Origin: an uncultured Desulfobacterium sp.
Lineage (GTDB): Bacteria; Desulfobacterota; DSM-4660; Desulfatiglandales; Desulfatiglandaceae
Assembly: GCA_900258555.1 (NCBI GenBank)
Contig: LT984856.1
Location: forward strand, 598,356 to 662,355
Reading direction: 5' to 3'
Length of the DNA stretch: 64,000 bases
Position numbers and translations under genes: made by a program. This document shows positions 14,217-27,806 of the stretch, piece by piece. Below the pieces are notes generated by a model, which worked only from the letters and a program-made list of their open reading frames with translations, was not told the origin of the DNA and ran no database searches. The stretch's first letter is position 1. Every line of letters starts with the position of its first letter.

Positions 14217-15593
14217 TTGAGTGTAGAGAAATTAGTGATTAATAGCGAAAACAAATCCGCCGGCCTCAGCATCTTGATTGTAGATGACGAGGCAAATATC
14301 CGAAAGACGCTCTCGGTCTGCCTGGAGTCACGCGGGCATCGGGCGACGTCGGTCAGCAATGGGAAAGATGCCCGGGCGGAAGCGGAACGGCAGGTGTTTG
14401 ACATGGTCTTTTTGGACCTGAGGTTGGGAACTGAAAACGGTCTTGATCTGATCCCATCCCTTCTTGGTGCATGCCCCTGGCTCAAGATAGTAGTCATCAC
14501 CGCCTATGCCTCGATAGACACCGCAGTGGAGGCCATGAGGCGGGGGGCGACTGATTATATCCCCAAACCCTTCACCCCCGGTCAGGTGGAACTGGTTATC
14601 GAACGGGCGGAAACGGTCCGGGGCATGGAACAGCGCATTGCTGCACTGAAAGAGGACATCGAGCGGCTGCATCCGGAGGTGTCATTTTCTTCCCGATATC
14701 CTGAAATGCAGCGCGCCATGGAGCTTGCCCGGCAGGTGGCTGCATCAGAGGCGGTTATTCTGCTCAGGGGGCCGAGCGGCACCGGCAAGACCGTGCTTGC
14801 CCGCGCCATTCACGGCTGGAGCCGCAGGGCGGCCAAACCTCTCGGCATCATATCCTGCCCTACACTGAGCCCGCAGCTTTTGGAAAGTGAACTCTTCGGT
14901 CATGTCAAAGGCGCCTTCACCGGTGCGCTTCGGGATAATCCTGGCCGTGTTGCCGCCTGTGAAGGCGGCACCCTACTTCTGGACGAGATCGGAGATCTGC
15001 CTCCCGCGATTCAGCCCAAGCTCCTTCGCTTTATTCAAGATCGCGAATACGAGCGGGTGGGAGATCAACAGACAAGAAAGGCCGACGTACGCATCATTAC
15101 CGCAACGAATACGGATCTGGATAAGGCGGTAAAAGAAGGCCGTTTCAGGGAAGACCTGTATTATCGGCTTAATGTCATACAGATTGATTTACCCCCCCTG
15201 GCCGATCGCCCCGATGACGTGGAAACACTCGCGAAAAACATGTTGGGCTTTTTCGGTGCACAGAATCACAAGGTATTTAGAGGCATGAGCGAGGAGGCCG
15301 TCAGCGCGCTCAGAAACTATGCCTGGCCGGGAAACGTCCGCGAGCTGCGCAATGTTATCGAAAGGGCCGCCATCCTTTGTATGACAGATGTCGTCGGAAT
15401 TGAGCATCTGCCTGCTTCAATCGCCCTTCGCACCCCCCCTGTTCAACTGGGAGACCACACCTCTTTGGAGGTGATCGAGGAAAACCATATCCGCCGCATT
15501 ATTGCATCTACCAGATCCTTACAGGAAGCGGCGGATATCTTGGGCATTGATCAGGCCACACTCTGGCGTAAGCGAAAGCAATACGGCATCTGA
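14217..15593 (+). CDS. NtrC-type sigma-54 response regulator linked to kdp
   Basis: A 458-aa enhancer-binding protein: receiver 18-130 with Asp67 (MVFLDLRLG), Thr and Lys117; AAA+ domain about 155-395 with Walker A GPSGTGKT (185-192), an exact GAFTGA loop (232-237) and Walker B TLLLDEIGD; Fis-type helix-turn-helix in the last 40 residues (LQEAADILGIDQATLWRKR). The start is a TTG at 14217 or the GTG at 14235; neither has a strong ribosome site. It precedes a histidine kinase and the kdp genes, whose promoter is of the -24/-12 class, so it most likely activates them. Canonical KdpE is an OmpR-type regulator, which makes this arrangement unusual. Confidence 0.92.
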   Translation: MSVEKLVINSENKSAGLSILIVDDEANIRKTLSVCLESRGHRATSVSNGKDARAEAERQVFDMVFLDLRLGTENGLDLIPSLLGACPWLKIVVITAYASIDTAVEAMRRGATDYIPKPFTPGQVELVIERAETVRGMEQRIAALKEDIERLHPEVSFSSRYPEMQRAMELARQVAASEAVILLRGPSGTGKTVLARAIHGWSRRAAKPLGIISCPTLSPQLLESELFGHVKGAFTGALRDNPGRVAACEGGTLLLDEIGDLPPAIQPKLLRFIQDREYERVGDQQTRKADVRIITATNTDLDKAVKEGRFREDLYYRLNVIQIDLPPLADRPDDVETLAKNMLGFFGAQNHKVFRGMSEEAVSALRNYAWPGNVRELRNVIERAAILCMTDVVGIEHLPASIALRTPPVQLGDHTSLEVIEENHIRRIIASTRSLQEAADILGIDQATLWRKRKQYGI

Positions 15594-15595
15594 TA

Positions 15596-15719
15596 ATACC
15601 AAGTCGCATTCAAATTTTAGCTGTGCTGGCTTCGTCGGTTTTGTCCTCGACGTATTAGACATACGCCTGCGGGTAAGCCTCCTTGCCGACTTGCTATCTC
15701 TTTGAATGCAACTTGGTAT
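15596..15719. repeat. 124-bp palindromic MITE-like element
   Basis: The ends are inverted repeats of 19 bases (15596-15614 and 15701-15719; ATACCAAGT at the left, ACTTGGTAT at the right) with one mismatch. The interior is GC-richer and itself partly self-complementary (GTCGG near 15638, CCGAC near 15686). It starts three bases after the regulator stop codon and has no reading frame. It looks like a small non-autonomous mobile hairpin. No second copy is visible in this window. Confidence 0.6.
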
Positions 15720-15750
15720 CAGGTCCCCTTTGCGTAGCATTGTATTTTGC

Positions 15751-15791: not shown

Positions 15792-15840
15792 ATCTTTCTA
15801 TCTAAACGTATCTATTTGATATAACTGGCATTAGACATCC

Positions 15841-15854
15841 GGCACACTGTTTGC
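15841..15854 (+). promoter_or_regulatory. sigma-54 promoter of the histidine kinase-kdp operon
   Basis: CGGCACACTGTTTGCT: GG-N10-GC with near-consensus -24 (GGCAC) and -12 (TTGCT) boxes. Predicted transcription start near 15866 leaves a 15-nt leader that contains AAAGGA before the ATG at 15881. Confidence 0.8.
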
Positions 15855-15880
15855 TCATAAATGTCATAAAGGACACACTT

Positions 15881-17704
15881 ATGATCGGCATCAGACAAAA
15901 ACTCATGTTGGGATTTGGCGGACTGCTTGTTGTCATTGCTGCCATTGGTGTGCTGACCATGGCGCAGATTGATGATCTTGGCAGGGCCATTGATGTGATA
16001 CTCAAGGAAAATTACCGCAGCGTGGTCGCCTGTCAGGACATGAAGGAATCGATCGAACGAATGGACAGCGGAGTCCTGTTTACACTCGCCGGCAACGAGG
16101 CGGAGGGAAATCGCCTGATTGAGGCATACTCGCCCAGGTTTCGCGCCGCACTGGACGTAGAACTCAATAATATCACGCTTCCTTCAGAACAGAAGAGGGC
16201 GGAGCGGATAAAGGCCCTGTTTGAAGAATACCTCAAGTCAATTCCTGGTGTGACGCAGACATCTCTCCCTTCACAGGCGCTACATACAAATTACTTTTCC
16301 ACATTGCTTCCCCTTTTCCTGGAAATCAAGAAAGAGGCACAGGAAATCATGCTCATGAACCAGAACAACATGAGCGAGGCGAACAATGCCGCCAGACGGC
16401 TTGCTGCTGCCGCGCACAGGCGCATGTTGATGGCGATTATGTTTTCAGCGTTCCTGGCGCTTTTGTTCAGCTATCTGGCGCAGAGATGGATCTTAAAGCC
16501 CATAAATCGCCTGACCGAATCCACCAAAGAGATCCGACGCGGAAATCTCGATCTCGTCTTAGAAGCGGGTTCCAGAGACGAAATAGGCATGCTTTCGGAG
16601 TCCTTTAATGAGATGACATCCGCACTCAGACAATTACGTAAGGAAGATATGGCCAACCTGATGCGGACACGTATGGCGACGCAAGAGGTATTCAAGGCCC
16701 TACCGTCGGCCGTTGCCGTGCTCGATTTAGAGGGAAGGGTCGAGGTCTCAACCGAGGCGGCGGACCGTTATTTCGGTCTGAGACCGGGTGTCATCGCAGA
16801 AGATCTTGGATATGAGTGGCTGTCTCCTCTGATTCAAAAGGCCCTGGACGAAAATCGCATCATAGAGAGCGATACCAAGAGCAATTACGTTCAGCAGTTT
16901 ATCAACAACCGCGAATATTTCTTTCAGCCGATGGCCGTTCCTATAACTGTCGGCGACAAAGGCATGGAACCAACCGGTGTGGCGTTGATCCTGAAGGATG
17001 TAACGCTGGTCCGTGAGCAGCAGGAATTAAAGAGCGGGGTGCTGTCCACTGTTTCACATCAGCTTAAGACACCACTGACCTCACTTCGCATGTCCATTCA
17101 TCTCCTCCTGGAGGAGAAGGTTGGAGCCCTTAATGAAAAGCAGATAGAACTGCTCGTTGCCGCACGGGAAGACAGCGAGAGACTGGTAGGCATTTTGGAC
17201 AATATTCTGGATCTTAACCGGATCGAGTCGGGCAGGTCTTATGTCTCCCCTGAATCTGTTTCACCGCAGGCGCTTGTCCGCGACGCTATAGAGCCTTTCC
17301 TCGCGGAGGCCAGGGACAAGAGCGTGAAGATTGCCAATGCAGTCCCGGATGACTTACCCGATGTTATGGCGGACATCGAAAAGATCCGCCATGTGTTCGC
17401 CAATCTGCTTTCAAACGCTATTCGCTTCACAAGCCCGGGGGGATCAGTTACTATTGGTGCTTATTCAGAATCAAACCATCTGGTGTTTTTTGTCGAGGAC
17501 ACGGGAAGCGGCATCCCCGCGCAATACATAAACCGCCTTTTTGAGCCGTTTTACCGTGTACCGGGGCAGGACGAAAAATCCGGCGTGGGCCTGGGTCTTG
17601 CTATTGTAAAGGAGATCATACAGTCCCATGGGGGAGAAGTCAGCGCTGAGAGCGAAATCGGCAAGGGATCGGCATTCCGCTTTACGCTGCCCTTAAAAGA
17701 ATAG
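15881..17704 (+). CDS. membrane sensor histidine kinase linked to kdp
   Basis: A 607-aa sensor kinase. Start placed at ATG 15881 with AAAGGA eight bases upstream; the upstream TTG at 15851 lies inside the promoter. Order: transmembrane helix 1 (about 8-30), periplasmic helical domain, transmembrane helix 2 (about 180-205), HAMP (LKPINRLTESTKEI), a PAS-like domain (about 265-375), HisKA with His393 (STVSHQLKTPLTSLR) and HATPase with N, G1 and G2 boxes (NLLSNAIRFT, VEDTGSGIP, GVGLGLAIVKEI). It resembles phosphate/nitrogen-type kinases, not KdpD. It is the first gene of the sigma-54 operon that continues with kdpF (10 bases away), so it probably phosphorylates the upstream regulator and is autoregulated. 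Confidence 0.9.
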   Translation: MIGIRQKLMLGFGGLLVVIAAIGVLTMAQIDDLGRAIDVILKENYRSVVACQDMKESIERMDSGVLFTLAGNEAEGNRLIEAYSPRFRAALDVELNNITLPSEQKRAERIKALFEEYLKSIPGVTQTSLPSQALHTNYFSTLLPLFLEIKKEAQEIMLMNQNNMSEANNAARRLAAAAHRRMLMAIMFSAFLALLFSYLAQRWILKPINRLTESTKEIRRGNLDLVLEAGSRDEIGMLSESFNEMTSALRQLRKEDMANLMRTRMATQEVFKALPSAVAVLDLEGRVEVSTEAADRYFGLRPGVIAEDLGYEWLSPLIQKALDENRIIESDTKSNYVQQFINNREYFFQPMAVPITVGDKGMEPTGVALILKDVTLVREQQELKSGVLSTVSHQLKTPLTSLRMSIHLLLEEKVGALNEKQIELLVAAREDSERLVGILDNILDLNRIESGRSYVSPESVSPQALVRDAIEPFLAEARDKSVKIANAVPDDLPDVMADIEKIRHVFANLLSNAIRFTSPGGSVTIGAYSESNHLVFFVEDTGSGIPAQYINRLFEPFYRVPGQDEKSGVGLGLAIVKEIIQSHGGEVSAESEIGKGSAFRFTLPLKE

Positions 17705-17714
17705 GAGAATATCA

Positions 17715-17795
17715 ATGGCTTATGTTGCTGCAATAGTCTTGGTGCTTTGCATGGTGTATCTGGTATATGCCATCATAGATCCTGAAAAATTCTAA
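17715..17795 (+). CDS. kdpF: KdpF, small membrane subunit of the K+-transporting ATPase
   Basis: A 26-aa single-helix peptide, MAYVAAIVLVLCMVYLVY then AIIDPEKF, with the Pro and terminal Phe typical of KdpF. AGGAG overlaps the stop of the kinase gene. KdpF stabilises the KdpABC complex in the inner membrane. Too short for routine gene callers, but its position directly before kdpA and its sequence make it convincing. Confidence 0.9.
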   Translation: MAYVAAIVLVLCMVYLVYAIIDPEKF

Positions 17796-17807: not shown

Positions 17808-19475
17808 ATGTCTACGCTCTTGATACTTTTGATACTAGGGGCCGCAGCCCTGTTATCCTGGCCTGCGGCAAAGTGGATGACCTGGGCCATGAGCCCTCCC
17901 CAAAAGGGCACTGGCTTTCGTTACAGCACTGAATCGGTCTTTCTCAGAATCGGAGGACAAACGGCCGCCAGGGATCAGAATTGGAAGGAGTATACATTGT
18001 CTCTTCTCCTTTTTAATTCGTTTATGTTCATAGTCGTATTTGTAATTTTGTCTCTGCAGCAGATCCTGCCTCTAAACCCTGACAGCAAGGGTGTATTGGA
18101 GCCGAGTCTGATCTTTCACACGGCCGCGTCATTTACCTCCAATACCAATCTGCAGCATTATTCCGGCGAAGTGTCGTTAAGCTATTTTTCGCAAATCTTT
18201 GGTTTGATGTGGCTGCAGTTCGTCTCAGCGGCAACCGGCATCGCATCTCTTGCAGCCCTTGCCAGGGGATTGTCCGGTAAGACCAATATGGGAAACTTCT
18301 TTTCCGACCTGATGAGGGCGACTTTCCTGGTATTGCTTCCTATGGCCGTTTTGGCATCAATACTTCTTATCCTTGGTGGTGTCCCCATGACCCTGCTGGG
18401 CGCGGCCACCGCAAAAACGCTCGAAGGGTCGTTACAGATCATTGCCAGGGGACCGGTTGCGGCCTTTGTCGCCATAAAACAATTGGGAACCAACGGAGGA
18501 GGGTTTTTCAGCGCCAACTCGGCGCATCCTTTTGAGAATCCGTCATTTTTTACCAACATTATCGAATGCGTCTGTATCATCCTGATTCCGATGGCCGGCG
18601 TCTGGATGTTTGGGCGAATCACGGGCCGTATGCGGCATGCTGTTATTATATTCTCTGTGATGGCGGTGTTGCTCGCAGGAAAGGTTGCGCTGGCCGTTTA
18701 CTTTGAGAGCGCACCCACTGCGGCCTTTGCAGAGTTGCCGGTCCAGGCAACCGGAAACATCGAAGGCAAGGAGCTTCGTTTCGGCGCTGTTGCAGGCGCC
18801 ACCTGGGGCGTGCTCACCACGGCCACAAGCAACGGCTCGGTAAACAGCATGCACGACAGCTTCAACCCTCTCACAGGGCTTATATTACTGGCCGGCATGT
18901 GGCTTAACATAACATTCGGCGGCGTCGGAGTGGGCCTGATCAATATGTTTTTGTATATCATCGTAGGGGTATTCATCTGCGGCATGATGGTAGGCCGCAC
19001 CCCGGAATATCTGGGCCGGAAAGTGGAGACACACGAGATGAAGCTGGCCCTCCTGACGCTTCTGGTTCATCCTCTGTTCATCCTCGGCGGGACCGCTGTT
19101 TTTGCGTTGACCCCATGGGGGGCCTCGACCGTGAATAATCCAGGGCCGCACGGGTTTACGGAAATACTCTACGAGTTTAGCTCGGCCGCGGCCAACAACG
19201 GATCAGGCTTTGAAGGACTGCGTGACAATACGACGCCCTGGAATGTGGCAACCGGCATCATCATGCTGCTGGCCCGTTTTATTCCTATCATCCTTCCCCT
19301 GGCTATAGCGGGCTCCCTGGCAGGCAGGAAACCAGCACCTGTAACTACCGGCACCTTGCGCACTGATACTTTTTTATTCGGCATGGTTATCCTGGGGAGT
19401 GTAATCTTTATAGGCGCACTGCTGTTTCTGCCTGTGGCTGTGTTGGGACCGGTGGCTGAGTATTTGGCTAAGTAG
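17808..19475 (+). CDS. kdpA: KdpA, potassium-translocating subunit
   Basis: A 555-aa polytopic membrane protein of the SKT superfamily, the usual length for KdpA. The four selectivity-loop regions are recognisable: TAASFTSNTNLQHYSG, QLGTNGGGFFSANSAHPFENP, TSNGSVNSMHDSFNPL and EFSSAAANNGSGFEG. It binds and channels K+ in the high-affinity KdpFABC pump. It lies 12 bases after kdpF and 16 before kdpB. N- and C-termini look complete; no frameshift. Confidence 0.96.
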   Translation: MSTLLILLILGAAALLSWPAAKWMTWAMSPPQKGTGFRYSTESVFLRIGGQTAARDQNWKEYTLSLLLFNSFMFIVVFVILSLQQILPLNPDSKGVLEPSLIFHTAASFTSNTNLQHYSGEVSLSYFSQIFGLMWLQFVSAATGIASLAALARGLSGKTNMGNFFSDLMRATFLVLLPMAVLASILLILGGVPMTLLGAATAKTLEGSLQIIARGPVAAFVAIKQLGTNGGGFFSANSAHPFENPSFFTNIIECVCIILIPMAGVWMFGRITGRMRHAVIIFSVMAVLLAGKVALAVYFESAPTAAFAELPVQATGNIEGKELRFGAVAGATWGVLTTATSNGSVNSMHDSFNPLTGLILLAGMWLNITFGGVGVGLINMFLYIIVGVFICGMMVGRTPEYLGRKVETHEMKLALLTLLVHPLFILGGTAVFALTPWGASTVNNPGPHGFTEILYEFSSAAANNGSGFEGLRDNTTPWNVATGIIMLLARFIPIILPLAIAGSLAGRKPAPVTTGTLRTDTFLFGMVILGSVIFIGALLFLPVAVLGPVAEYLAK

Positions 19476-19491
19476 TATCCTAGAGGAACAT

Positions 19492-21570
19492 ATGAAATAC
19501 AACACCAACGATCATATACAGGCAAAACTCGACCGGAGAAGGTCTCGCCGGGCTTCTCTCTTTAAAAAAGACCTGGTGCGAATTGCTGCAAGACAGTCTG
19601 TAATCATGTTAAAGCCGTGGGTAATGGCGCGAAATCCTGTTATGTTTATTACCGAGATCGGAGCAGTCATGACGACTCTCGTACTTGTCCTTGATTTGTT
19701 AAAGCACCGTTATGGCCTGATATACACCCTTGCCGTGACAGTAGTCCTGTGGGCGACCGTCCTTTTCGCCAATTTTGCAGAGGCCCTGGCCGAGGCCCGC
19801 GGCAAGGCGCAGGCCGACACCCTGAAAAGAACCAGGCGTAAGGCCATGGCCCGTAAGGTGATAAATGGATTGGAGGAACAGGTCAGCTCGGATGAATTGC
19901 ACGAGGGAGAGATTGTTCTGGTAAAGGCGGGAGAGATTATCCCCAGTGACGGAGAGGTGATAGAGGGGGCTGCAACTGTAGATGAATCAGCGATCACCGG
20001 TGAATCCGCTCCGGTCGTCCGTGAGGCGGGAGGAGACCGATCGGGAGTTACAGGAGGCACGCGAGTACTTTCAGACCGGATCAGTATTCGTATCACCGCA
20101 CGGGCAGGTCAGTCGTTTCTCGACCGCATGATCGCACTGGTTGAGGGCGCAGTCAGACAAAAGACACCCAACGAACTGGCGCTGACCGTGACATTGGCGG
20201 GGCTGACCCTTGCCTTTCTATTGGTGACAGGCGCACTGTGGCCTATAGGCCGCTTTTTTGGGGTGGATTTGCCTATTCCAACATTGATCGCCTTGCTGGT
20301 CTGTTTGATTCCAACGACCATCGGCGCGCTTCTTGCGGCCATAGGCCTGGCAGGAATGGACCGCGCCCTTTCGGCCAATGTGCTGGCCAAAAGCGGCAAG
20401 GCAGTGGAATTGGCGGGCGACATTGACACACTGCTTTTGGACAAGACCGGCACCATAACCCTGGGTGACCGCCAGGCCACAGAGTATTTTCCTCTTACGG
20501 GTGTGACCAGGGCGCAACTCGCCGAGTCGGCGATGTGGGCCTCGTTTGGGGACCAGACGCCTGAGGGCAAATCCATCATAAAGCTTGGTGAAGAAACCCT
20601 TGGGTCGAGCGCGCCCCTTGAAACACCGGGAGCCAAGGTCGTTCCATTTACTGCGCATTCCAGATTGAGCGGCCTTGATCTCCCTGATGGACGGTCTTTC
20701 CGCAAGGGGGCACCTGATGCTATTTATGCCTACATCCAGGGACAGGCCGCCTCCGTCACTCCGGCCCTGCAGGCGCTGGTGGACGGCGTAGGCCGTCATG
20801 GCGGGACACCTATCGTAGTGGCCGAGGGGAAAAATGTGCTTGGGGTGGTTGCGCTCTCAGATGTACTGAAACCTGGCATCCGCGACAGATTTGAACGGCT
20901 GCGCGCCATGGGTCTTCGCGTTGTAATGGTGACGGGAGATAACCGGCTCACCGCCGCCGCCATTGCAGGGCAGGCCGGTGTAGATGACTACATAGCTGAG
21001 GCAAAGCCGGAGGACAAGCTTGAATATATACGCAGGGAGCAGCGAGAGGGAAGATTGATCGCCATGATGGGCGACGGAACAAATGACGCCCCGGCCCTGG
21101 CCCAGGCGGATATCGGTGTTGCCATGAACTCAGGTACCCAGGCGGCCAAGGAAGCGGGAAACATGGTTGATCTGGACAGTGATCCCACCAAGCTCATTGA
21201 GGTTATCGAGATCGGAAAGCAATTGCTTATGACCCGCGGGGCACTTACCACTTTTTCCATTGCAAATGATGTAGCAAAGTACTTCGCCATTATTCCGGCG
21301 ATGTTCATGCTGGCCATCCCACAGCTTGCGGCGCTCAACGTCATGGGGTTGACGACTCCGCAGAGCGCGATCCTTTCCGCCCTGATTTTTAATGCCATAA
21401 TCATCCCTCTGCTCATTCCTGTAGCCATCAAGGGTGTAAAATACAGGCCCATGGGGGCGGACAGCATCCTGCGGAGGAACCTTTTGATCTATGGGCTGGG
21501 TGGTGTGATCGCCCCTTTTGCCGGCATAAAGCTGATTGACATGGCCTTGGGTTTGACCAGGCTCTTTTAG
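19492..21570 (+). CDS. kdpB: KdpB, P-type ATPase subunit
   Basis: A 692-aa P-type ATPase: actuator motif TGESAPV, phosphorylated Asp317 in DKTGTITLGD, nucleotide-binding domain (FTAHSRLSGLDL, KGAPDAI), hinge MVTGDNRLTAAAIA and MMGDGTNDAPALAQADIGVAM. About seven membrane segments. It hydrolyses ATP to drive K+ uptake through KdpA. Standard length, all catalytic motifs intact. Confidence 0.97.
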   Translation: MKYNTNDHIQAKLDRRRSRRASLFKKDLVRIAARQSVIMLKPWVMARNPVMFITEIGAVMTTLVLVLDLLKHRYGLIYTLAVTVVLWATVLFANFAEALAEARGKAQADTLKRTRRKAMARKVINGLEEQVSSDELHEGEIVLVKAGEIIPSDGEVIEGAATVDESAITGESAPVVREAGGDRSGVTGGTRVLSDRISIRITARAGQSFLDRMIALVEGAVRQKTPNELALTVTLAGLTLAFLLVTGALWPIGRFFGVDLPIPTLIALLVCLIPTTIGALLAAIGLAGMDRALSANVLAKSGKAVELAGDIDTLLLDKTGTITLGDRQATEYFPLTGVTRAQLAESAMWASFGDQTPEGKSIIKLGEETLGSSAPLETPGAKVVPFTAHSRLSGLDLPDGRSFRKGAPDAIYAYIQGQAASVTPALQALVDGVGRHGGTPIVVAEGKNVLGVVALSDVLKPGIRDRFERLRAMGLRVVMVTGDNRLTAAAIAGQAGVDDYIAEAKPEDKLEYIRREQREGRLIAMMGDGTNDAPALAQADIGVAMNSGTQAAKEAGNMVDLDSDPTKLIEVIEIGKQLLMTRGALTTFSIANDVAKYFAIIPAMFMLAIPQLAALNVMGLTTPQSAILSALIFNAIIIPLLIPVAIKGVKYRPMGADSILRRNLLIYGLGGVIAPFAGIKLIDMALGLTRLF

Positions 21571-21580
21571 GAACAAGCCT

Positions 21581-22168
21581 ATGAGCGACACAAAGAAGCA
21601 CATAAATGTATATCAACAGATAATCACATCAGGCCGTATTGTAATAGCCTCAATGACCATTTGCTGTTTGCTGTATGGACTTGCATTGCTGTCATTCGGC
21701 CGCTTGGTTATGCAGGATAGCGCTGATGGATCACTTATCTTAAATGATCATAAAGAAACCATCGGCAGTGAGCTGATCGCTCAAGGTTTTACTCGCCCCG
21801 AATACTTCTGGCCCAGGCCCTCAGCGGTTGCTTACAATGCATCGGCATCGGCGGGCAGCAACTTTTCTCCCACAAATCCGGCGCTTCGTCACAGGGCAGA
21901 GGCCATTATAACAAAAATGGAAGCAAAGGCGGGTAATCCAATCCCTGCTGATCTGGTTTCCGCTTCAGGGAGCGGCCTTGACCCGCATATTACTCTGGCT
22001 GCTGCAAGATATCAGGCAGCCAGGGTCGCGGCAGCCAGGGGTTTATCCGATGCCTTGGTTATGGGGCTTCTTGAAAAATCCGCGAAAAGTCCTGGCGGGC
22101 CACTCACCCCTGACCCGGTAGTAAATGTGTTACTTATAAATATGGCCTTGGACAGGTTAAAAAAGTGA
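21581..22168 (+). CDS. kdpC: KdpC subunit
   Basis: A 195-aa protein with one N-terminal membrane helix (about 15-40) and a periplasmic domain carrying the family signature QGFTRPEYFWPRPSA, NASASAGSNFSPTNP, DLVSASGSGLDPHIT and AARYQAARVAAARG. It assembles with KdpB and raises ATP affinity of the pump. Eleven bases after kdpB, two bases before the KdpD-like gene. Confidence 0.96.
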   Translation: MSDTKKHINVYQQIITSGRIVIASMTICCLLYGLALLSFGRLVMQDSADGSLILNDHKETIGSELIAQGFTRPEYFWPRPSAVAYNASASAGSNFSPTNPALRHRAEAIITKMEAKAGNPIPADLVSASGSGLDPHITLAAARYQAARVAAARGLSDALVMGLLEKSAKSPGGPLTPDPVVNVLLINMALDRLKK

Positions 22169-22169
22169 T

Positions 22170-23846
22170 ATGAATGATAACCGCGCCGACAGTTTTCTGC
22201 GTCTTATTCGCCGGTCACAGCGAGGCAGGTTGAAAATCTACATGGGCTATGCCGCTGGTGTAGGCAAGACCTACCAGATGCTCCTTGAAGCCCACCGGCT
22301 CAAGGAGGACGGGATAGATGTGACGGCAGGAATTGTTGAAACCCACGGAAGGGTGGAGACAGAGGCCTTGCTCGCGGGTCTGGAGACGATTGCCTTGAGC
22401 AAGTTCACCTACCGGGGAATAGATGTCGAGGAAATGGATCTTGACACGATTCTTTTGCGTCGCCCCAGTGTCGTGCTCGTTGATGAACTCGCCCATACCA
22501 ACATACCTGGAAGCAAAAACGCCAAGCGCTATCAGGATGTTGAAGAGATACTATCTGCTGGTATTCATGTCATCTCGACCCTGAACGTTCAACACTTAGA
22601 AAGCCTGTATGAAACCGTGGAACGCGCTACCGGCGTCAAAGTCCGGGAGAGGATACCCGACCATGTTGTTGCTGAGGCCGATCAGCTTGTAAATGTGGAT
22701 ATTACCACCGAGGACCTGCGCCGCCGCCTGAAAGAGGGAAAAGTCTACACCAGGGAAAGCATTGAGACCGCCCTTGATCATTTCTTTAAGCCGACGAATC
22801 TCGAGCAACTTCGCGAGCTGACCCTTCGGGAGTTGGCTGCGCAAATAGATTCGCGCAGCCGCGATCCGCTCGCAGAGGCCATCCCCTCAAGTCCTGACCA
22901 GGTCATGGTATGTCTCAGTTCAAGGGGACCAAACAGCGGCGCACTGCTTCGCTATGCATCCCGCCTGGCCGGAAGGCTGAATCGTAACTGGTATGCGATG
23001 TATGTGCAAACATCTCAGGAACATCCAACTGTGATTGATGCTACCACCCAGAGGATACTTTCAAACACCCTGACGCTCGCCCAACAATTGGGGGCTACAG
23101 TATTCACTTACAAGGGCGATGATATCGTAAAAACCATCCTCCAGTTCGCAAGGGAGTATCGCGTAGGACATATAGTGATAGGCACGCCTGGAAGGAGTGT
23201 GCCTTTGTGGCGGCGGTTCAAGGGTGAAGTCAGCATTGTGGAAAGACTTATAACAGAGGGAAGGGGCGTTACCGTCGTTGTCCTGGATACCAGGGCCTTG
23301 CCCGATCAGGCGGGGGAGGAGATTAATCGTCAGGCTGAAAAAAAACGTCGTAAGTTCAAAGAAAGGGCGGAGCAGGTGTCCGGGAGCAAGGCAACACTTT
23401 CCAATGCCCATGTCCTTATCTGGGATAAGGCCATTGAAAAATATGAAGCTATGAAGCAGTTGCTTAACGTATGTAGTCGTGAAAAGGGCCTGCACAGGGA
23501 GTCGGCATGGGATGCCCTTCTTGAGCGGGAACAACAGGGAGGGACATTTGTGGGCGAAGATGTAGCGATTCCTCACGCACGGATCACAGGGATTAAACGG
23601 CCTGTCATCGCCCTTGGCGTCTGTAAATCAGGCATCCATGATAGAGAGTATGACCGTACCGTTAAAATTATGTTTCTCCTGCTTTCCCCCTCAGAGCCTC
23701 CCGAAAGCCATGTGGAGATGCTTGGCGTGATCGGCAGAATCGGCCGAGATGATCAGTGGCGCAGGGAAGTCCTTTCCGCAAGGAAATCATCAGATGTCAT
23801 GAGTTTGATCCGGCAAAGGGAAAAACAACTAAAGTCGGGTGACTAA
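22170..23846 (+). CDS. kinase-less KdpD sensor fused to a PTS EIIA domain
   Basis: A 558-aa soluble protein with three parts. Residues about 15-230 are the KdpD N-terminal domain (Walker A GYAAGVGKT, VETHGRVETEALLAGLE, DELAHTNIPGSKNAKRYQD, STLNVQHLESL). About 245-375 is a universal-stress-type domain (GHIVIGTPGRS). About 415-555 is a PTS EIIA type-2 domain with phosphorylatable His469 (DVAIPHARITG). The membrane, GAF and histidine-kinase parts of full KdpD are missing. In E. coli, free EIIA-Ntr (PtsN) binds KdpD and modulates K+ control; here that partnership is built into one chain. The separate kinase at 15881 presumably supplies the kinase function. Adjacent convergent gene begins its stop at 23862. 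Confidence 0.9.
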   Translation: MNDNRADSFLRLIRRSQRGRLKIYMGYAAGVGKTYQMLLEAHRLKEDGIDVTAGIVETHGRVETEALLAGLETIALSKFTYRGIDVEEMDLDTILLRRPSVVLVDELAHTNIPGSKNAKRYQDVEEILSAGIHVISTLNVQHLESLYETVERATGVKVRERIPDHVVAEADQLVNVDITTEDLRRRLKEGKVYTRESIETALDHFFKPTNLEQLRELTLRELAAQIDSRSRDPLAEAIPSSPDQVMVCLSSRGPNSGALLRYASRLAGRLNRNWYAMYVQTSQEHPTVIDATTQRILSNTLTLAQQLGATVFTYKGDDIVKTILQFAREYRVGHIVIGTPGRSVPLWRRFKGEVSIVERLITEGRGVTVVVLDTRALPDQAGEEINRQAEKKRRKFKERAEQVSGSKATLSNAHVLIWDKAIEKYEAMKQLLNVCSREKGLHRESAWDALLEREQQGGTFVGEDVAIPHARITGIKRPVIALGVCKSGIHDREYDRTVKIMFLLLSPSEPPESHVEMLGVIGRIGRDDQWRREVLSARKSSDVMSLIRQREKQLKSGD

Positions 23847-23861
23847 TGCTAGTGATGCCCG

Positions 23862-25403
23862 CTATGGGGAGAGCACCTTGCAGCAGACAAGCTTGCCGTC
23901 TCCTGGGGCGTAAAAATCCTCCAGGACCGATTCAAATACATAACCGCACCGCTGATAAAAGGCCCTTGTGGTGTTGTAGATCTCCGACTGTGAGGTGTCC
24001 ACATAGACGCGGGTTCCTCCTGCTTCTCCAATAAGCCTTTCTGTCTCGTCCAATATCATCTTGCCTGCGCCTTTTCTTTGATATACAGGGTCCACTGCAA
24101 TCCAATAAAGGTCATAACTGGATGCGGTACAGGGGATCGGTCCATAACAGGAATATCCAATGAGCTGATCATCTTTTTCCAGGAAGACAAAATAATAGTC
24201 GCTTGCCGGCCCTTTTGTGAGCCTTTCTTCTACAAGCTCTATTGCCACCTCCACCTCATAGGGGTGAAAAAAATTGGTTTCAACAATTATCCGTCTGATA
24301 TCCTCTACATCCTTCATGCAGGGTTCGTATCGGAAACACGTATCTTTTATAGAGGTGGGATATCCATCTGACTTGGATTTTGTCGAATTAATATGTCCCC
24401 CCTTCCCCATGACATCATTAATGATACACTCAACCGCACTGTCAAAGCTCATGCCTGCCCGGCTTATTGCCGCAGCAAACCCGGCATCAGGGGAAAGGCA
24501 CGGATTAGCATTCACTTCCAGGATAAATGGCCTGCCGTCTTTATCCACGCGAAAGTCCACCCGGGCATAACCCTTGAGCCCAAACACCTTCCAGCATTGT
24601 ATGGCCAGCTTTTCCAGCTCTTTCAATAAAAGGGTATCTTCGTCAGTAAAATCAAAACGCCTGGGCGTATGGGAATACTCAAATGATTGCTCATCCCATT
24701 TTGCCTTGTAACAGACGATGTGCGCCCTGTCTTCCTGATATCCCTCAAATATGATCTCAGCAGGCGGCAATACCTTCGGACCATCAGTCCCGGCCAGGAT
24801 AGAAAGGTTAAACTCCCTCCCCTCAATATACAGCTCGGCAAAACAGGCCCCTGCCAGTTCCGGGGCGCGTATGCGCATACTATCCATTATGACTTCGGGC
24901 CTTTCGGCAACAACAAGCCCGTCGCCTGTAAGCCCAATGGAGGCGTGTTCCCACACGGACTTGATTATCCACGGTCCCTTTGGCCATCGGATAGAAGATC
25001 CATACTTTGAACAAGGCTCAAAGGGATATGGACCGACCCAGTCTGGGGTGGGCAGTCCTGCTGCCCGCATCTTCTCCTTTGCCATGACTTTGTGTGAAGT
25101 AAGATAAATTGATGCAGATGGGGAGCCTGTGTAGATAACGCCCAAGGCGTCAAAAAGGGAAGGGACAAGAAAAATCAATTGCCCACGGCCATCAAGAGAT
25201 TCAACAAGGTTAAAGATACAATCAGGCCTTAGCCTCTCAACAGCAAGTTTAAGGGCAGACAGATCAAGATTGCAGGGAATGGGGACCGGTTGATGACCGA
25301 GGCTTAAAAGCGCCTTACTTACAGTCTCAGCCTGTACAAGGACATCTCGCTCATCAGGCAGGCTTGAGTCTGTCACCTGGTTGTGGGCGATTGCTATGAG
25401 CAT
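23862..25403 (-). CDS. ATP-grasp ligase (D-Ala-D-Ala ligase-like) fused to GNAT acetyltransferase
   Basis: A 513-aa fusion. Start taken at ATG 25403 (AGGA eight bases upstream), which overlaps the preceding gene by 10 bases. Residues 1-335 are an ATP-grasp domain of the D-Ala-D-Ala ligase type: LTSHKVMAKEKMRAAGLPTP, PWIIKSVWEHASIG, FAELYIEGREFNLSI and metal-binding RPFILEVNANP (296-301 for EVNANP). After a linker, about 358-513 is a GNAT domain with acetyl-CoA motif QRKGAG (442-447) and IAVDPVYQ. The pair of activities suggests amide-bond formation followed, or preceded, by N-acetylation. It follows another ligase and a lysine 2,3-aminomutase, so beta-lysine or a product of it is a plausible substrate. 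True D-Ala-D-Ala ligase is unlikely because of the context and fusion. Confidence 0.85.
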   Translation of the reverse strand: MLIAIAHNQVTDSSLPDERDVLVQAETVSKALLSLGHQPVPIPCNLDLSALKLAVERLRPDCIFNLVESLDGRGQLIFLVPSLFDALGVIYTGSPSASIYLTSHKVMAKEKMRAAGLPTPDWVGPYPFEPCSKYGSSIRWPKGPWIIKSVWEHASIGLTGDGLVVAERPEVIMDSMRIRAPELAGACFAELYIEGREFNLSILAGTDGPKVLPPAEIIFEGYQEDRAHIVCYKAKWDEQSFEYSHTPRRFDFTDEDTLLLKELEKLAIQCWKVFGLKGYARVDFRVDKDGRPFILEVNANPCLSPDAGFAAAISRAGMSFDSAVECIINDVMGKGGHINSTKSKSDGYPTSIKDTCFRYEPCMKDVEDIRRIIVETNFFHPYEVEVAIELVEERLTKGPASDYYFVFLEKDDQLIGYSCYGPIPCTASSYDLYWIAVDPVYQRKGAGKMILDETERLIGEAGGTRVYVDTSQSEIYNTTRAFYQRCGYVFESVLEDFYAPGDGKLVCCKVLSP

Positions 25404-26407
25404 CTTTTTCTTCCTGGACTTTCCCCCTTGTGAATCCTTTTTGAGGCGGATGTCAGGATTCTGTGTATTAAGTGTACATAGGGAATGCCCAGGTGCGTGC
25501 ACAAGATGGGAAGATCTGAATGTTGGGGATGCAGGCCTGCAAGGGGGTTTATCTCAAGAAAATAGGGGCTGCCGAATTCATCGCAGCGGAAGTCCACCCT
25601 GCCAGCATCCCGGCATCCCAATACCTTCCATATCTCAATGGCCATGAGTTGCGCTTCTTTGACAGATGGGTCGTCAGGCGCTGCAAGATGGTACTCTACA
25701 AGGTCTTCGCAGTTTTCCTTATTGCGGTAAGAATAGACACCCTTTTCCGCGGCCTCAAGCAGGATGACCTCAAGTGTTCCCAGCGCCTCTGCGTCAGCTC
25801 CGGAGCCTATTACACCTACGGTAAATTCCCTGCCGCAAAGATATTTCTCCACCAGCACCGGCTGATTATATGATTCAATAAGCCCGGCGCAGCCCCCTTG
25901 GAGTCTTTTTCGCTCTTTTATTACAGAATGCTCAGAGATGCCTTTGCTCGTGCCCTCGGCAATTGGTTTAATAAAATAGGGAGGATCAAAAGAAATCTTT
26001 TCTAAATCATGGGCCGCCTCAACAACAGCAAAATCAGGGGTGCGGATTCCGCATTGCCTGATGACCTGCTTGGTCAGGCCCTTATGGAGGGTGAGGCTCA
26101 TAACCAGGGGATCGGAAAAGGTGTAAGGCAGATCGTATAAGTCAAGGATGGCCGGCACCTGCGCCTCTCTGCCAATGCCTAGCAGGCCTTCTGCAATATT
26201 AAAGACAATATCCCAGCGATCACCTTGGACCAGCCGTTCCGTCAGCTTTTTCGCATGGCCGATTCTATCGGTATGGTGCCCCAGGGCATATAGGGCGCGT
26301 TCTATGGCAATAATTGTGTCGTCCCGATCAAACTCCGCTGTCTCGTATTCTGTATAACCCATGGCGAGATACTCAGAGCGCAGGTCATAGGTCAGTCCAA
26401 TAATCAT
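25394..26407 (-). CDS. ATP-grasp ligase (D-Ala-D-Ala ligase-like)
   Basis: A 337-aa stand-alone ATP-grasp enzyme; ATG 26407 has GGAG seven bases upstream and gives MIIGLTYDLRSEY, while the longer frame from 26440 lacks a site. Motifs: LTLHKGLTKQVIRQCGI, YFIKPIAEGTSKGIS (147-156 core), LVEKYLCGREFTVGV, AGRVDFRCDEFGSPYFLEINPLAGLHP (metal ligands at 285-288). It would activate a carboxylate as acyl phosphate and join it to an amine. Overlaps the following fusion gene, and lies 37 bases after the aminomutase gene. It is clearly a paralogue of the ligase half of its neighbour, so two successive ligations are possible. Confidence 0.85.
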   Translation of the reverse strand: MIIGLTYDLRSEYLAMGYTEYETAEFDRDDTIIAIERALYALGHHTDRIGHAKKLTERLVQGDRWDIVFNIAEGLLGIGREAQVPAILDLYDLPYTFSDPLVMSLTLHKGLTKQVIRQCGIRTPDFAVVEAAHDLEKISFDPPYFIKPIAEGTSKGISEHSVIKERKRLQGGCAGLIESYNQPVLVEKYLCGREFTVGVIGSGADAEALGTLEVILLEAAEKGVYSYRNKENCEDLVEYHLAAPDDPSVKEAQLMAIEIWKVLGCRDAGRVDFRCDEFGSPYFLEINPLAGLHPQHSDLPILCTHLGIPYVHLIHRILTSASKRIHKGESPGRKRCS

Positions 26408-26444
26408 TAAATATCTCCACAGGGATGGGTATACATTCAATCAG

Positions 26445-27806
26445 CTAAAGGCACAATTGATCGAATCCCGGGTTTGTAGCTTCGGAGGCGATGCAGACAT
26501 TTGCATCCTTTATCGGGTCAGGATAACGGTAAAGGCGGTCTTCATAGTTTTTAAGGATAAGTTCGTCTCCCTCCCTCCCCGCAAGGTAGTCCGGGAGCAG
26601 AGGGACCTTGCCGCCTCCACCGGGTGCGTCTATCACATATGTGGGGACTGCATAGCCGGTAGTATGACCGCGGAGACCTTTTATAATCTTGATGCCATCC
26701 TTCACCGGTGTTCTAAAATGGGCCGAACCGACAATGGGGTCGCATTGATAGAGGTAATATGGTCTTACCCTTATGCGAAGAAGGCCGTGAACCAGGCGCC
26801 TCATGACATCTACATCATTATTTATTCCATTTAAAAGAACAGTCTGGCTGCCAAGGGGTATGCCTGCGTCGGCCAGCCGCTCACATGCCTGTGCGACTTC
26901 CGGGGTCAATTCATCAGGGTGGGTGAAATGAATGCTGATCAACAGTGGATGATAATGTCTCAGCATGCGCGTTAAAGCAGGGGTAATGCGCTGGGGCAGG
27001 ACCACAGGGGCCTTTGTTCCGATACGGAGTATCTCCACATGAGGAATTCGCCTCAACCTTGAAAGAAGCCACTCCAGTCTTTCATCCGAAAGGGTCAAGG
27101 GATCTCCGCCCGATAAAAGGACATCCCTGATTGAATGATTCTTCTCAATGTAATCAATCGCCCCATCCAGCAGTGCAATGTTGAAGGCGTCAGCCCCTTT
27201 GTGACCCACTACGCGCGATCGTGTGCAGTAACGACAATAGGTAGAGCAGAAACCTGTTACGAGAAGAAGCACACGGTCCGGGTATCGGTGGACCAAGCCC
27301 GGCACGGGGCTGTCATCGTCTTCACCCAAAGGATCTTCTGCCTCGCCGATGGTATGAGCTTTTTCAGCAGTGACTGGTATTACGGTACGCCTTATGGGCT
27401 GCAAAGGATCTTTCTTGTCTACAATGCTTAAATAATATGGAGTGACGGCTAAGGGAAAGTTATTATTGTAACCGGTAATCGCCTGGATCTCGTCTTCCGA
27501 AAGATCAATGATACGGGAGAGGTCTTTTATTCTGATAATGCGGTTGCTTAATTGCCAACGCCAGTCGTTCCACTGGTTACGGCTGATGTCAGGGAAAAAA
27601 TGCTTCATGAAGGATGAGGAATGATGGCTTACGCGAAACTTGGGCTGGCTGGGAATTCCTCTAAGCTTTATGGTTTTTGTATTTTGCCCGGGAAGGGCAT
27701 CATCGTTTTCCTGCTTAAAATTTTCAAATGATCTTATTTCAGCCCCGTATTCGCGACATATACTCGGAGGCTCAAAATCTTCAACACTGGATGTAGCCTT
27801 TTTCAT
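26445..27806 (-). CDS. kamA: lysine 2,3-aminomutase (KamA/AblA family)
   Basis: A 453-aa radical SAM and PLP enzyme converting L-lysine to L-beta-lysine. Cluster motif Cys187-x3-Cys191-x2-Cys194 (GFCSTYCRYC); PLP lysine Lys400 in DAPGGGGK; and the two aspartates that hold the lysine side-chain amine in the clostridial enzyme are kept as Asp356 (YQCD) and Asp393 (VIDAP), which argues for lysine rather than glutamate as substrate. The N-terminal 60 residues are longer than in the clostridial enzyme. First gene of an operon with two ATP-grasp ligases, one bearing a GNAT domain; beta-lysine acetyltransferase AblB, the usual partner in acetyl-beta-lysine osmolyte synthesis, is absent as a free protein. 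A -24/-12 promoter lies 64 bases upstream. Confidence 0.92.
   Translation of the reverse strand: MKKATSSVEDFEPPSICREYGAEIRSFENFKQENDDALPGQNTKTIKLRGIPSQPKFRVSHHSSSFMKHFFPDISRNQWNDWRWQLSNRIIRIKDLSRIIDLSEDEIQAITGYNNNFPLAVTPYYLSIVDKKDPLQPIRRTVIPVTAEKAHTIGEAEDPLGEDDDSPVPGLVHRYPDRVLLLVTGFCSTYCRYCTRSRVVGHKGADAFNIALLDGAIDYIEKNHSIRDVLLSGGDPLTLSDERLEWLLSRLRRIPHVEILRIGTKAPVVLPQRITPALTRMLRHYHPLLISIHFTHPDELTPEVAQACERLADAGIPLGSQTVLLNGINNDVDVMRRLVHGLLRIRVRPYYLYQCDPIVGSAHFRTPVKDGIKIIKGLRGHTTGYAVPTYVIDAPGGGGKVPLLPDYLAGREGDELILKNYEDRLYRYPDPIKDANVCIASEATNPGFDQLCL

What the first reader, a model, noticed from the sequence alone, without database searches (positions are those of the whole stretch)
22170..23846. 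KdpD sensor module fused directly to a PTS EIIA domain, without kinase
Seen: KdpD N-domain, universal-stress domain and an EIIA type-2 domain with His469 in one 558-aa chain; no histidine-kinase motifs. Known: in E. coli free EIIA-Ntr binds KdpD and alters K+ control. Inference: this fusion is a covalent version of that link and feeds PTS phosphorylation state into Kdp control, possibly by acting on the pump or on the separate kinase.
Basis: partly seen in the sequence, partly recalled or inferred. Interest (0 to 1): 0.74.

Follow-up and report, generated by a model that had tools for sequence, protein, structure and literature searches.

The report
Potassium-pump regulator fused to PTS domain
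A bacterial potassium pump operon encodes a regulator in which a domain known elsewhere to switch the pump off by phosphorylating it is permanently joined to a sugar-transport-type signalling domain, so that the cell's metabolic state could probably control potassium uptake directly; the joined form is real, arose once and is widespread, but its function is untested.

Summary
ORF 22170-23846 (558 aa) is one chain: KdpD domain (17-226), USP domain (about 242-375), a variable linker, and a type-2 PTS EIIA domain (about 406-555) with phospho-acceptor His469. It is not an assembly error: I recovered 47 distinct fusions across several phyla. They form one clade, the EIIA is under purifying selection, and those read with their flanks sit in the same cassette: sigma-54 response regulator, histidine kinase, kdpFABC, fusion. 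The interpretation needs correcting in two ways. First, 'without kinase' holds only for the histidine kinase. The KdpD domain itself is a published atypical serine kinase that phosphorylates KdpB Ser162 and shuts the pump off; its catalytic residues and the target serine (KdpB Ser172 here) are present. Second, this is not simply E. coli's PtsN-KdpD link made covalent, because PtsN binds the transmitter domain, absent here. Best reading: a PTS-controlled serine kinase that inhibits KdpFABC after translation, while the neighbouring sigma-54 two-component pair controls transcription. The own genome has EI, an HPr-like domain and free PtsN. Chlorobi fusions lack any detectable diadenylate cyclase, so c-di-AMP cannot be the general input. 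Activity, sign and coupling are inferred.

The parts
22170..23846 (+). KdpD(ASK)-USP-EIIA fusion gene, 558 aa
   Evidence: 1-nt gap from the kdpC stop
22218..22847 (+). KdpD domain (residues 17-226), candidate atypical serine kinase: Walker A G26-x5-G32-K33-T34, Y35, Walker B D105-E106, R186
   Evidence: PF02702 306.8 bits; PDB 2r8r Z 31.0; residues invariant in 47/47 fusions except Y35 (Y/W/F in 45)
22893..23294 (+). USP domain (residues about 242-375), RxxxR-x8-WxAxY type; C248-x-S250-x-R252-x2-N255 keeps most of the c-di-AMP consensus
   Evidence: 7ji4 Z 17.0; motif in 47/47 fusions
23295..23384 (+). variable, poorly predicted linker (residues 376-405)
   Evidence: pLDDT under 50 at 377-390 and 395-406; dN/dS 0.31 over 376-410
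23385..23834 (+). EIIA (PTS_EIIA_2) domain, residues about 406-555
   Evidence: PF00359 67.4 bits; 1a6j Z 19.4; dN/dS 0.137
23574..23576 (+). codon for His469, predicted phospho-acceptor
   Evidence: H in 47/47 fusions
14217..15593 (+). NtrC-type (sigma-54) response regulator of the cassette
   Evidence: Pfam; conserved position in related cassettes
15840..15855 (+). sigma-54 -24/-12 promoter-like site CGGCACACTGTTTGCT, 41 bp upstream of the likely HK start codon
   Evidence: 0 of 500 shuffles of the local region as good; equivalent site in 16 of 20 loci
15881..17704 (+). separate HAMP-HisKA-HATPase histidine kinase (longest ORF starts at TTG 15851)
   Evidence: Pfam; start codon
17715..17795 (+). 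kdpF-like small ORF, MAYVAAIVLVLCMVYLVYAIIDPEKF
   Evidence: sequence and position
17808..19475 (+). kdpA
   Evidence: PF03814, TIGR00680 over cut-off
19492..21570 (+). kdpB; Ser172 in TGES is the equivalent of E. coli Ser162
   Evidence: TIGR01497 over cut-off; TGES
21581..22168 (+). kdpC
   Evidence: PF02669

Best explanation
The protein is a PTS-regulated serine kinase of the Kdp pump. The KdpD domain binds ATP and phosphorylates the TGES serine of KdpB (Ser172 here), switching off KdpFABC after translation. The EIIA domain takes a phosphoryl group on His469 from the cell's EI/HPr chain, and its phosphorylation state raises or lowers the kinase activity through the USP and linker. Pump activity thereby follows metabolic (PEP/PTS) state, alongside whatever nucleotide the USP binds. 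Transcription is handled separately by the adjacent histidine kinase and sigma-54 response regulator. Shown here: anatomy, intact catalytic residues, intact target serine, intact phospho-His, single origin, purifying selection, operon linkage, presence of EI and HPr-like proteins. Known from others' experiments on homologues: serine-kinase activity of the KdpD domain on KdpB. Inferred: that this KdpD domain is active, that His469 is phosphorylated, that EIIA controls the kinase, and the sign of that control.
For: Catalytic residues K33, T34, D105, E106 and R186 in 47/47 fusions; H469 in 47/47. KdpB TGES serine in every KdpB that covers the site. Serine-kinase function of KdpD and of an HK-less short KdpD/Usp shown in E. 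coli and D. geothermalis (PMC11018627). EIIA dN/dS 0.137. Fused EIIAs form one clade apart from free EIIAs (SH-aLRT 97), and the KdpD-USP tree reads as one gain plus losses. Same cassette in Desulfobacterota, Riflebacteria, Hydrogenedentota, Chlorobiaceae, Lentisphaeria. Own genome has EI, an HPr-like domain with GFHARPA, PtsN and EIIA-man. EI in 39 of 41 further fusion genomes and in all fusion genomes. No diadenylate cyclase found in 22 of 22 Chlorobi-type fusion genomes, so c-di-AMP cannot be the general input. EIIA_2 is also fused to cation/H+ antiporters in related genomes, so tying EIIA to ion transport recurs.
Against: No activity, phosphorylation or interaction data exist for any fusion in what I could search. 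Relatives with the same type of cassette lack EIIA (L015, L018, L112/L113/L019), so it is dispensable in some lineages. The relative placement of the domains is not predicted with confidence (pTM 0.45), so a physical path from EIIA to the kinase site is not shown. The USP keeps 4 of 5 positions of a c-di-AMP consensus and the own genome has a diadenylate cyclase, so c-di-AMP may be the main input here. The own genome's HPr domain match is weak (32 bits).
Confidence: 0.52

Rival explanations
1. The EIIA domain acts on transcription: it contacts the separate histidine kinase (15881) or its sigma-54 response regulator, as free PtsN contacts the transmitter domain of E. coli KdpD, and the KdpD-USP part serves as an anchor or K+/nucleotide sensor.
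For: PtsN-KdpD contact in E. coli is through the transmitter domain (reference title in PMC13104625). HK and response regulator are conserved in the cassette, and the response regulator of the D. vulgaris version regulates its own kdp operon (PMC3333781).
Against: The cassette HK also stands beside EIIA-less KdpD/Usp proteins (L015, L018, L019), so it does not need EIIA. Pfam shows only HAMP, HisKA and HATPase in it. The fusion gene lies at the pump end of the operon, directly after kdpC, not at the HK end.
Confidence: 0.2
2. The USP domain with c-di-AMP (or AMP/ATP) is the main input of the serine kinase; EIIA is a modulator or an oligomerisation/docking module with little PTS signalling.
For: Short KdpD/Usp of D. 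geothermalis is stimulated by c-di-AMP (PMC11018627). The fusion keeps C248-x-S250-x-R252-x2-N255 and Y278, that is 4 of 5 positions of the published consensus (PMC8214093). Diadenylate cyclase is found in the own genome and in 15 of 19 Desulfobacterota fusion genomes.
Against: No diadenylate cyclase in 22/22 Chlorobi-type fusion genomes, nor in G046, G048 and G050, although the fusions keep the same USP motif. The USP lacks the SXS-X20-FTAXY motif. An invariant H469 is not expected of a mere docking module.
Confidence: 0.2
3. The fusion is functionally inert or decaying: EIIA is a hitchhiker without signalling role.
For: EIIA is missing from some relatives, and H514 is Q in 19 of 47.
Against: H469 invariant in 47/47 over several phyla; dN/dS 0.137 in the EIIA segment between congeners against 0.31 in the linker.
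Confidence: 0.05

Closest known systems
Short KdpD/Usp atypical serine kinase (D. geothermalis KdpD; Silberberg et al. 2024, PMC11018627)
   Same: KdpD domain with G-x5-GKT and DE motifs, USP domain, no TM/GAF/histidine-kinase domains, gene directly downstream of the pump, separate two-component system for transcription, KdpB target serine present
   Different: An extra C-terminal EIIA domain; the fused form is not mentioned in the main text of that survey; some hosts (Chlorobi) show no diadenylate cyclase
D. vulgaris DVU3334-3339 kdp operon (PMC3333781)
   Same: Response regulator, separate HK (DVU3335), kdp pump genes and a KdpD-UspA protein (DVU3336) in one operon; the response regulator was found there to regulate its own operon
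   Different: DVU3336 is described with K+ sensor and UspA domains only; no EIIA is reported
PtsN (EIIA-Ntr) regulation of KdpD in E. coli, P. putida, rhizobia (review PMC13104625)
   Same: A PTS EIIA domain of the same Pfam family (PF00359) acts on Kdp regulation; rhizobia even carry ptsN2 in the kdpDE cluster
   Different: There EIIA is a free protein acting on a full histidine kinase (its transmitter domain in E. coli); here it is covalent and joined to a chain without transmitter domain
Cation/H+ antiporter-EIIA fusions
   Same: C-terminal EIIA_2 domain joined to an ion-transport protein
   Different: Partner is a PF00999 exchanger, not a kinase

Membership tests
KdpD-domain atypical serine kinase, short KdpD/Usp class | KdpD domain with Walker A G-x5-GKT | tested here: met
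   PF02702 306.8 bits; G26..G32-K33-T34, K and T in 47/47
KdpD-domain atypical serine kinase, short KdpD/Usp class | Walker B D/E (E. coli D109, E110) and adenine-binding pair (W39, R190) | tested here: met
   D105, E106, R186 in 47/47; position 35 aromatic in 45/47 (Y in the window)
KdpD-domain atypical serine kinase, short KdpD/Usp class | USP domain after the KdpD domain, no TM/GAF/DHp/CA | tested here: met
   7ji4 Z 17.0 over 242-375; no HisKA/HATPase
KdpD-domain atypical serine kinase, short KdpD/Usp class | Substrate serine in KdpB (TGES) | tested here: met
   Ser172 in the window KdpB; all KdpBs of the set that cover the site
KdpD-domain atypical serine kinase, short KdpD/Usp class | Phosphorylates KdpB and inhibits the pump | not testable with these tools
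   needs purified proteins
KdpD-domain atypical serine kinase, short KdpD/Usp class | c-di-AMP binding USP | tested here: inconclusive
   SXS-X20-FTAXY absent, but 4 of 5 positions of the (A/G/C)XSXSX2N..(Y/F) consensus kept; diadenylate cyclase in own genome, absent in Chlorobi
KdpD sensor histidine kinase (E. coli type) | DHp (HisKA) and CA (HATPase) domains | tested here: not met
   no match; PRK10490 score 359.8 against cut-off 1123
NCBIfam NF038185 KdpD_non_kinase | score over curated cut-off 550 | tested here: not met
   354.4 bits
PTS EIIA type 2 (PF00359: Ntr/fructose/mannitol) | EIIA-2 fold and family score | tested here: met
   67.4 bits against cut-off 27; 1a6j Z 19.4
PTS EIIA type 2 (PF00359: Ntr/fructose/mannitol) | phospho-acceptor histidine | tested here: met
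   H469, 47/47
PTS EIIA type 2 (PF00359: Ntr/fructose/mannitol) | phosphoryl supply (EI and HPr) in the genome | tested here: met
   EI 597 aa; HPr-like domain 32 bits with GFHARPA inside a 443-aa protein next to rapZ
PTS EIIA type 2 (PF00359: Ntr/fructose/mannitol) | actual phosphorylation of H469 | not testable with these tools
   needs EI/HPr assay
EIIA-Ntr (PtsN) orthologue | groups with free PtsN proteins | tested here: not met
   fused EIIAs form their own clade, SH-aLRT 97, against 44 free EIIAs; the genome has a separate PtsN-like gene beside rpoN and hpf

The most novel reading that the evidence does not exclude
A third class of Kdp regulator: an EIIA-gated serine kinase that lets the PEP-dependent phosphotransferase system turn a P-type K+ ATPase off by serine phosphorylation, replacing direct K+ sensing (E. 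coli) and, in Chlorobi, c-di-AMP sensing (Deinococcus) as the input.
Probability: 0.42. Interest if true: 0.78.

Novelty: new variant of a known kind. Interest (0 to 1): 0.56.

Why it matters
The 2024 work that found KdpD to be a serine kinase left open what controls that activity in proteins without K+-sensing domains, with c-di-AMP as the one answer shown. Here is a widespread, once-evolved architecture with a built-in candidate input, the PTS, including in organisms where no diadenylate cyclase was found. It has no predicted membrane domain and is small, so the question can be tested directly in vitro, and it would join PEP/carbon status to K+ uptake in one polypeptide.

Tried and rejected
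Sequencing error or chance ORF at the joint: rejected, 47 distinct fusions. Chance EIIA match: rejected (67 bits, fold Z 19). Fusion as recent local event: rejected, single origin with spread over phyla. EIIA pseudogenisation: rejected (dN/dS 0.137, invariant His). Remnant of EIIA downstream of the EIIA-less L015 gene: none recognisable in three frames. c-di-AMP input by the S. aureus motif: motif absent, but a later consensus is 4/5 met, so left open. Plasmid spread: no plasmid record covers 80% or more of the protein. Literature searches for KdpD with EIIA or PTS_EIIA_2 found no report of the fusion in the open library; subscription papers and supplements were not searched. Phmmer of the USP segment against PDB sequences found nothing useful; only the fold search identified it.

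Full report
Observation. The ORF at 22170-23846 (+) encodes 558 aa and begins one base after the stop codon of kdpC. Pfam finds the KdpD domain at 17-226 (306.8 bits) and PTS_EIIA_2 at 414-549 (67.4 bits), and no histidine-kinase domain. NCBIfam KdpD models extend over the USP region but stay below their cut-offs. An AlphaFold2 model from 35 homologues (mean pLDDT 82, pTM 0.45) has three well-predicted domains, a poorly predicted linker at 377-406 and no reliable domain arrangement. Its parts align with the KdpD N-domain (2r8r, Z 31.0), the USP of S. aureus KdpD (7ji4, Z 17.0) and EIIA-Ntr (1a6j, Z 19.4). His469 lies in AIPHAR, the EIIA phosphorylation motif.

Operon. The order is NtrC-type response regulator (14217-15593), HAMP-HisKA-HATPase kinase (about 15881-17704), a kdpF-like ORF (17715-17795), kdpA, kdpB, kdpC, fusion. 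A sigma-54 -24/-12-like site, CGGCACACTGTTTGCT, lies at 15840-15855, 41 bp before the likely HK start. A site of comparable quality was found near the HK start in 16 of 20 related loci (in L010 further upstream, at -156), while the region upstream of kdpA, used as a control, showed none that stood out (window scan). The cassette with the fusion recurs in Desulfobacteraceae, other Desulfobacterota, Riflebacteria, Hydrogenedentota, Chlorobiaceae and Lentisphaeria. A version without EIIA is known experimentally: in D. vulgaris the response regulator DVU3334 regulates its own kdp operon, which holds DVU3335 (HK) and DVU3336 (K+ sensor domain plus UspA) (PMC3333781).

Distribution and history. In an even sample of 395 Desulfobacterota genomes, 72 have a KdpD N-domain match and 20 of these are full-length fusions, the window's included. 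In 296 genomes of the phylum that holds the Chlorobiaceae, 33 have full-length fusions and five of these have two copies; all twelve of the new ones that I put in a tree group with the named Chlorobiaceae. Other sampled members of the window's own family, apart from the congener, gave only EIIA matches and no KdpD. On a tree of the KdpD-USP part (66 rows), EIIA presence needs four changes, most simply one gain and three losses; well-supported branches force at least two. In a tree of EIIA domains the 47 fused ones are one clade against 44 free ones (SH-aLRT 97). Between the window and its congener, dN/dS is 0.069 for KdpD, 0.100 for USP, 0.309 for the linker and 0.137 for EIIA. The fusion is thus old, single in origin as far as these trees tell, linked to the pump operon, and maintained by selection.

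What 'without kinase' misses. Silberberg et al. 2024 (PMC11018627) showed that the KdpD domain itself is an atypical serine kinase: it phosphorylates Ser162 of KdpB and blocks the pump at high K+. Short KdpD/Usp proteins without histidine kinase keep this function, and the one from D. geothermalis is stimulated by c-di-AMP. They name Walker A (G-x5-GKT), D109, E110 and the pair W39/R190 as essential. With an offset of four, the fusion has G26..G32-K33-T34, D105, E106, Y35 and R186; K, T, D, E and R are invariant in 47/47 fusions and in the 19 short relatives, and position 35 is aromatic in 45/47 fusions. KdpB of the window has TGES with Ser172, and every KdpB of the set that covers the site keeps it. 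The protein is therefore best described as a serine kinase of the pump with an EIIA domain attached. This is inferred from homology; no activity was measured.

What the EIIA could do. In E. coli free PtsN stimulates KdpD, and the contact is with its transmitter domain (Luttmann 2009 and Mork-Morkenstein 2017, known here from review PMC13104625 and its reference list). That domain is absent here, so the fusion is not the same contact made covalent. The remaining on-chain target is the KdpD-USP module. The phosphoryl supply exists: the own genome has EI (597 aa), an HPr-like domain with GFHARPA inside a 443-aa protein beside rapZ, a free PtsN-like EIIA beside rpoN and hpf, and an EIIA-man. EI is found in 39 of 41 further fusion genomes and in all fusion genomes; in G050 and G051 (draft genomes) the fused domain is the only EIIA_2 detected. 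In the Chlorobiaceae phylum the contrast is marked: fusion genomes have diadenylate cyclase 0/22 and EI 20/22, short KdpD/Usp genomes 10/17 and 5/17. These counts follow phylogeny (the fusions there are one clade), so the Fisher tests are not independent evidence of association. What they do show is that c-di-AMP is unlikely to be the input of all fusions. In Desulfobacterota diadenylate cyclase is present in 15/19 fusion genomes and 16/16 short ones.

USP input. The USP motif is the E. coli type RxxxR-x8-WxAxY in 47/47, and the S. aureus SXS-X20-FTAXY is absent (PMC4686210). A structure-based consensus, (A/G/C)XSXSX2N..(Y/F) (PMC8214093), is met at four of five positions (C248, S250, R252 instead of Ser, N255, Y278). 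Binding of c-di-AMP or another adenine nucleotide is therefore left open.

Conclusion. Most likely the protein couples PTS phosphorylation state to serine-kinase inhibition of KdpFABC, with transcription handled by the separate sigma-54 two-component pair. The sign of the coupling cannot be read from sequence; published PtsN effects on KdpD differ between species in which form, phosphorylated or not, is active. Related genomes also carry EIIA_2 fused to cation/H+ antiporters, so direct EIIA control of ion-transport proteins seems to be a recurring solution. The architecture must have been in sequence databases for years, but I found no description of it in the open-access library searched. I rate it a new variant of a known kind: testable and physiologically interesting, with a mechanism that rests on homology.

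Noticed in passing
window 15594-15725: 126-bp element with 19-nt terminal inverted repeats between the response regulator and HK genes; two more copies (90% and 87% identical) elsewhere in the genome (G000 C1:2089686 and C1:2536753), like a small non-autonomous mobile element.
   Followed up: partly
window 15840-15855 and related loci: Conserved sigma-54 promoter-like site upstream of the HK-kdpFABC-fusion unit, pointing to sigma-54 control of Kdp across phyla.
   Followed up: yes
L134:1440-3182 (G053) and L135:1548-3404 (G047): Cation/H+ antiporters (PF00999) with a C-terminal PTS_EIIA_2 domain, another EIIA-ion transport fusion.
   Followed up: partly
L086:1373-2704 (own genome): The only HPr-like domain found in the genome is the C-terminal part of a 443-aa protein of otherwise unknown domain make-up, directly upstream of rapZ; no stand-alone HPr was found.
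   Followed up: partly
G532, G579, G595, G631, G655: Genomes of the Chlorobiaceae phylum with two full-length KdpD-USP-EIIA genes of about 60% and 55% identity to the window protein.
   Followed up: no
L020, L021, L030: EIIA-less KdpD/Usp gene beside the same type of HK and response regulator, with no kdpA, kdpB or kdpC detected on the held stretch (up to 17 kb, some cut by contig ends).
   Followed up: no
G602 C12:95200-96777: A more distant 556-aa protein matching residues 8-537 at 35% identity, possibly a diverged fusion.
   Followed up: no
window 23862-27806 (-): Downstream of the fusion, on the other strand: two D-Ala-D-Ala-ligase-like ATP-grasp genes (the first with a C-terminal acetyltransferase-like part) and a lysine-2,3-aminomutase-like gene, which look like one operon; names judged from sequence by eye, not searched.
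   Followed up: no
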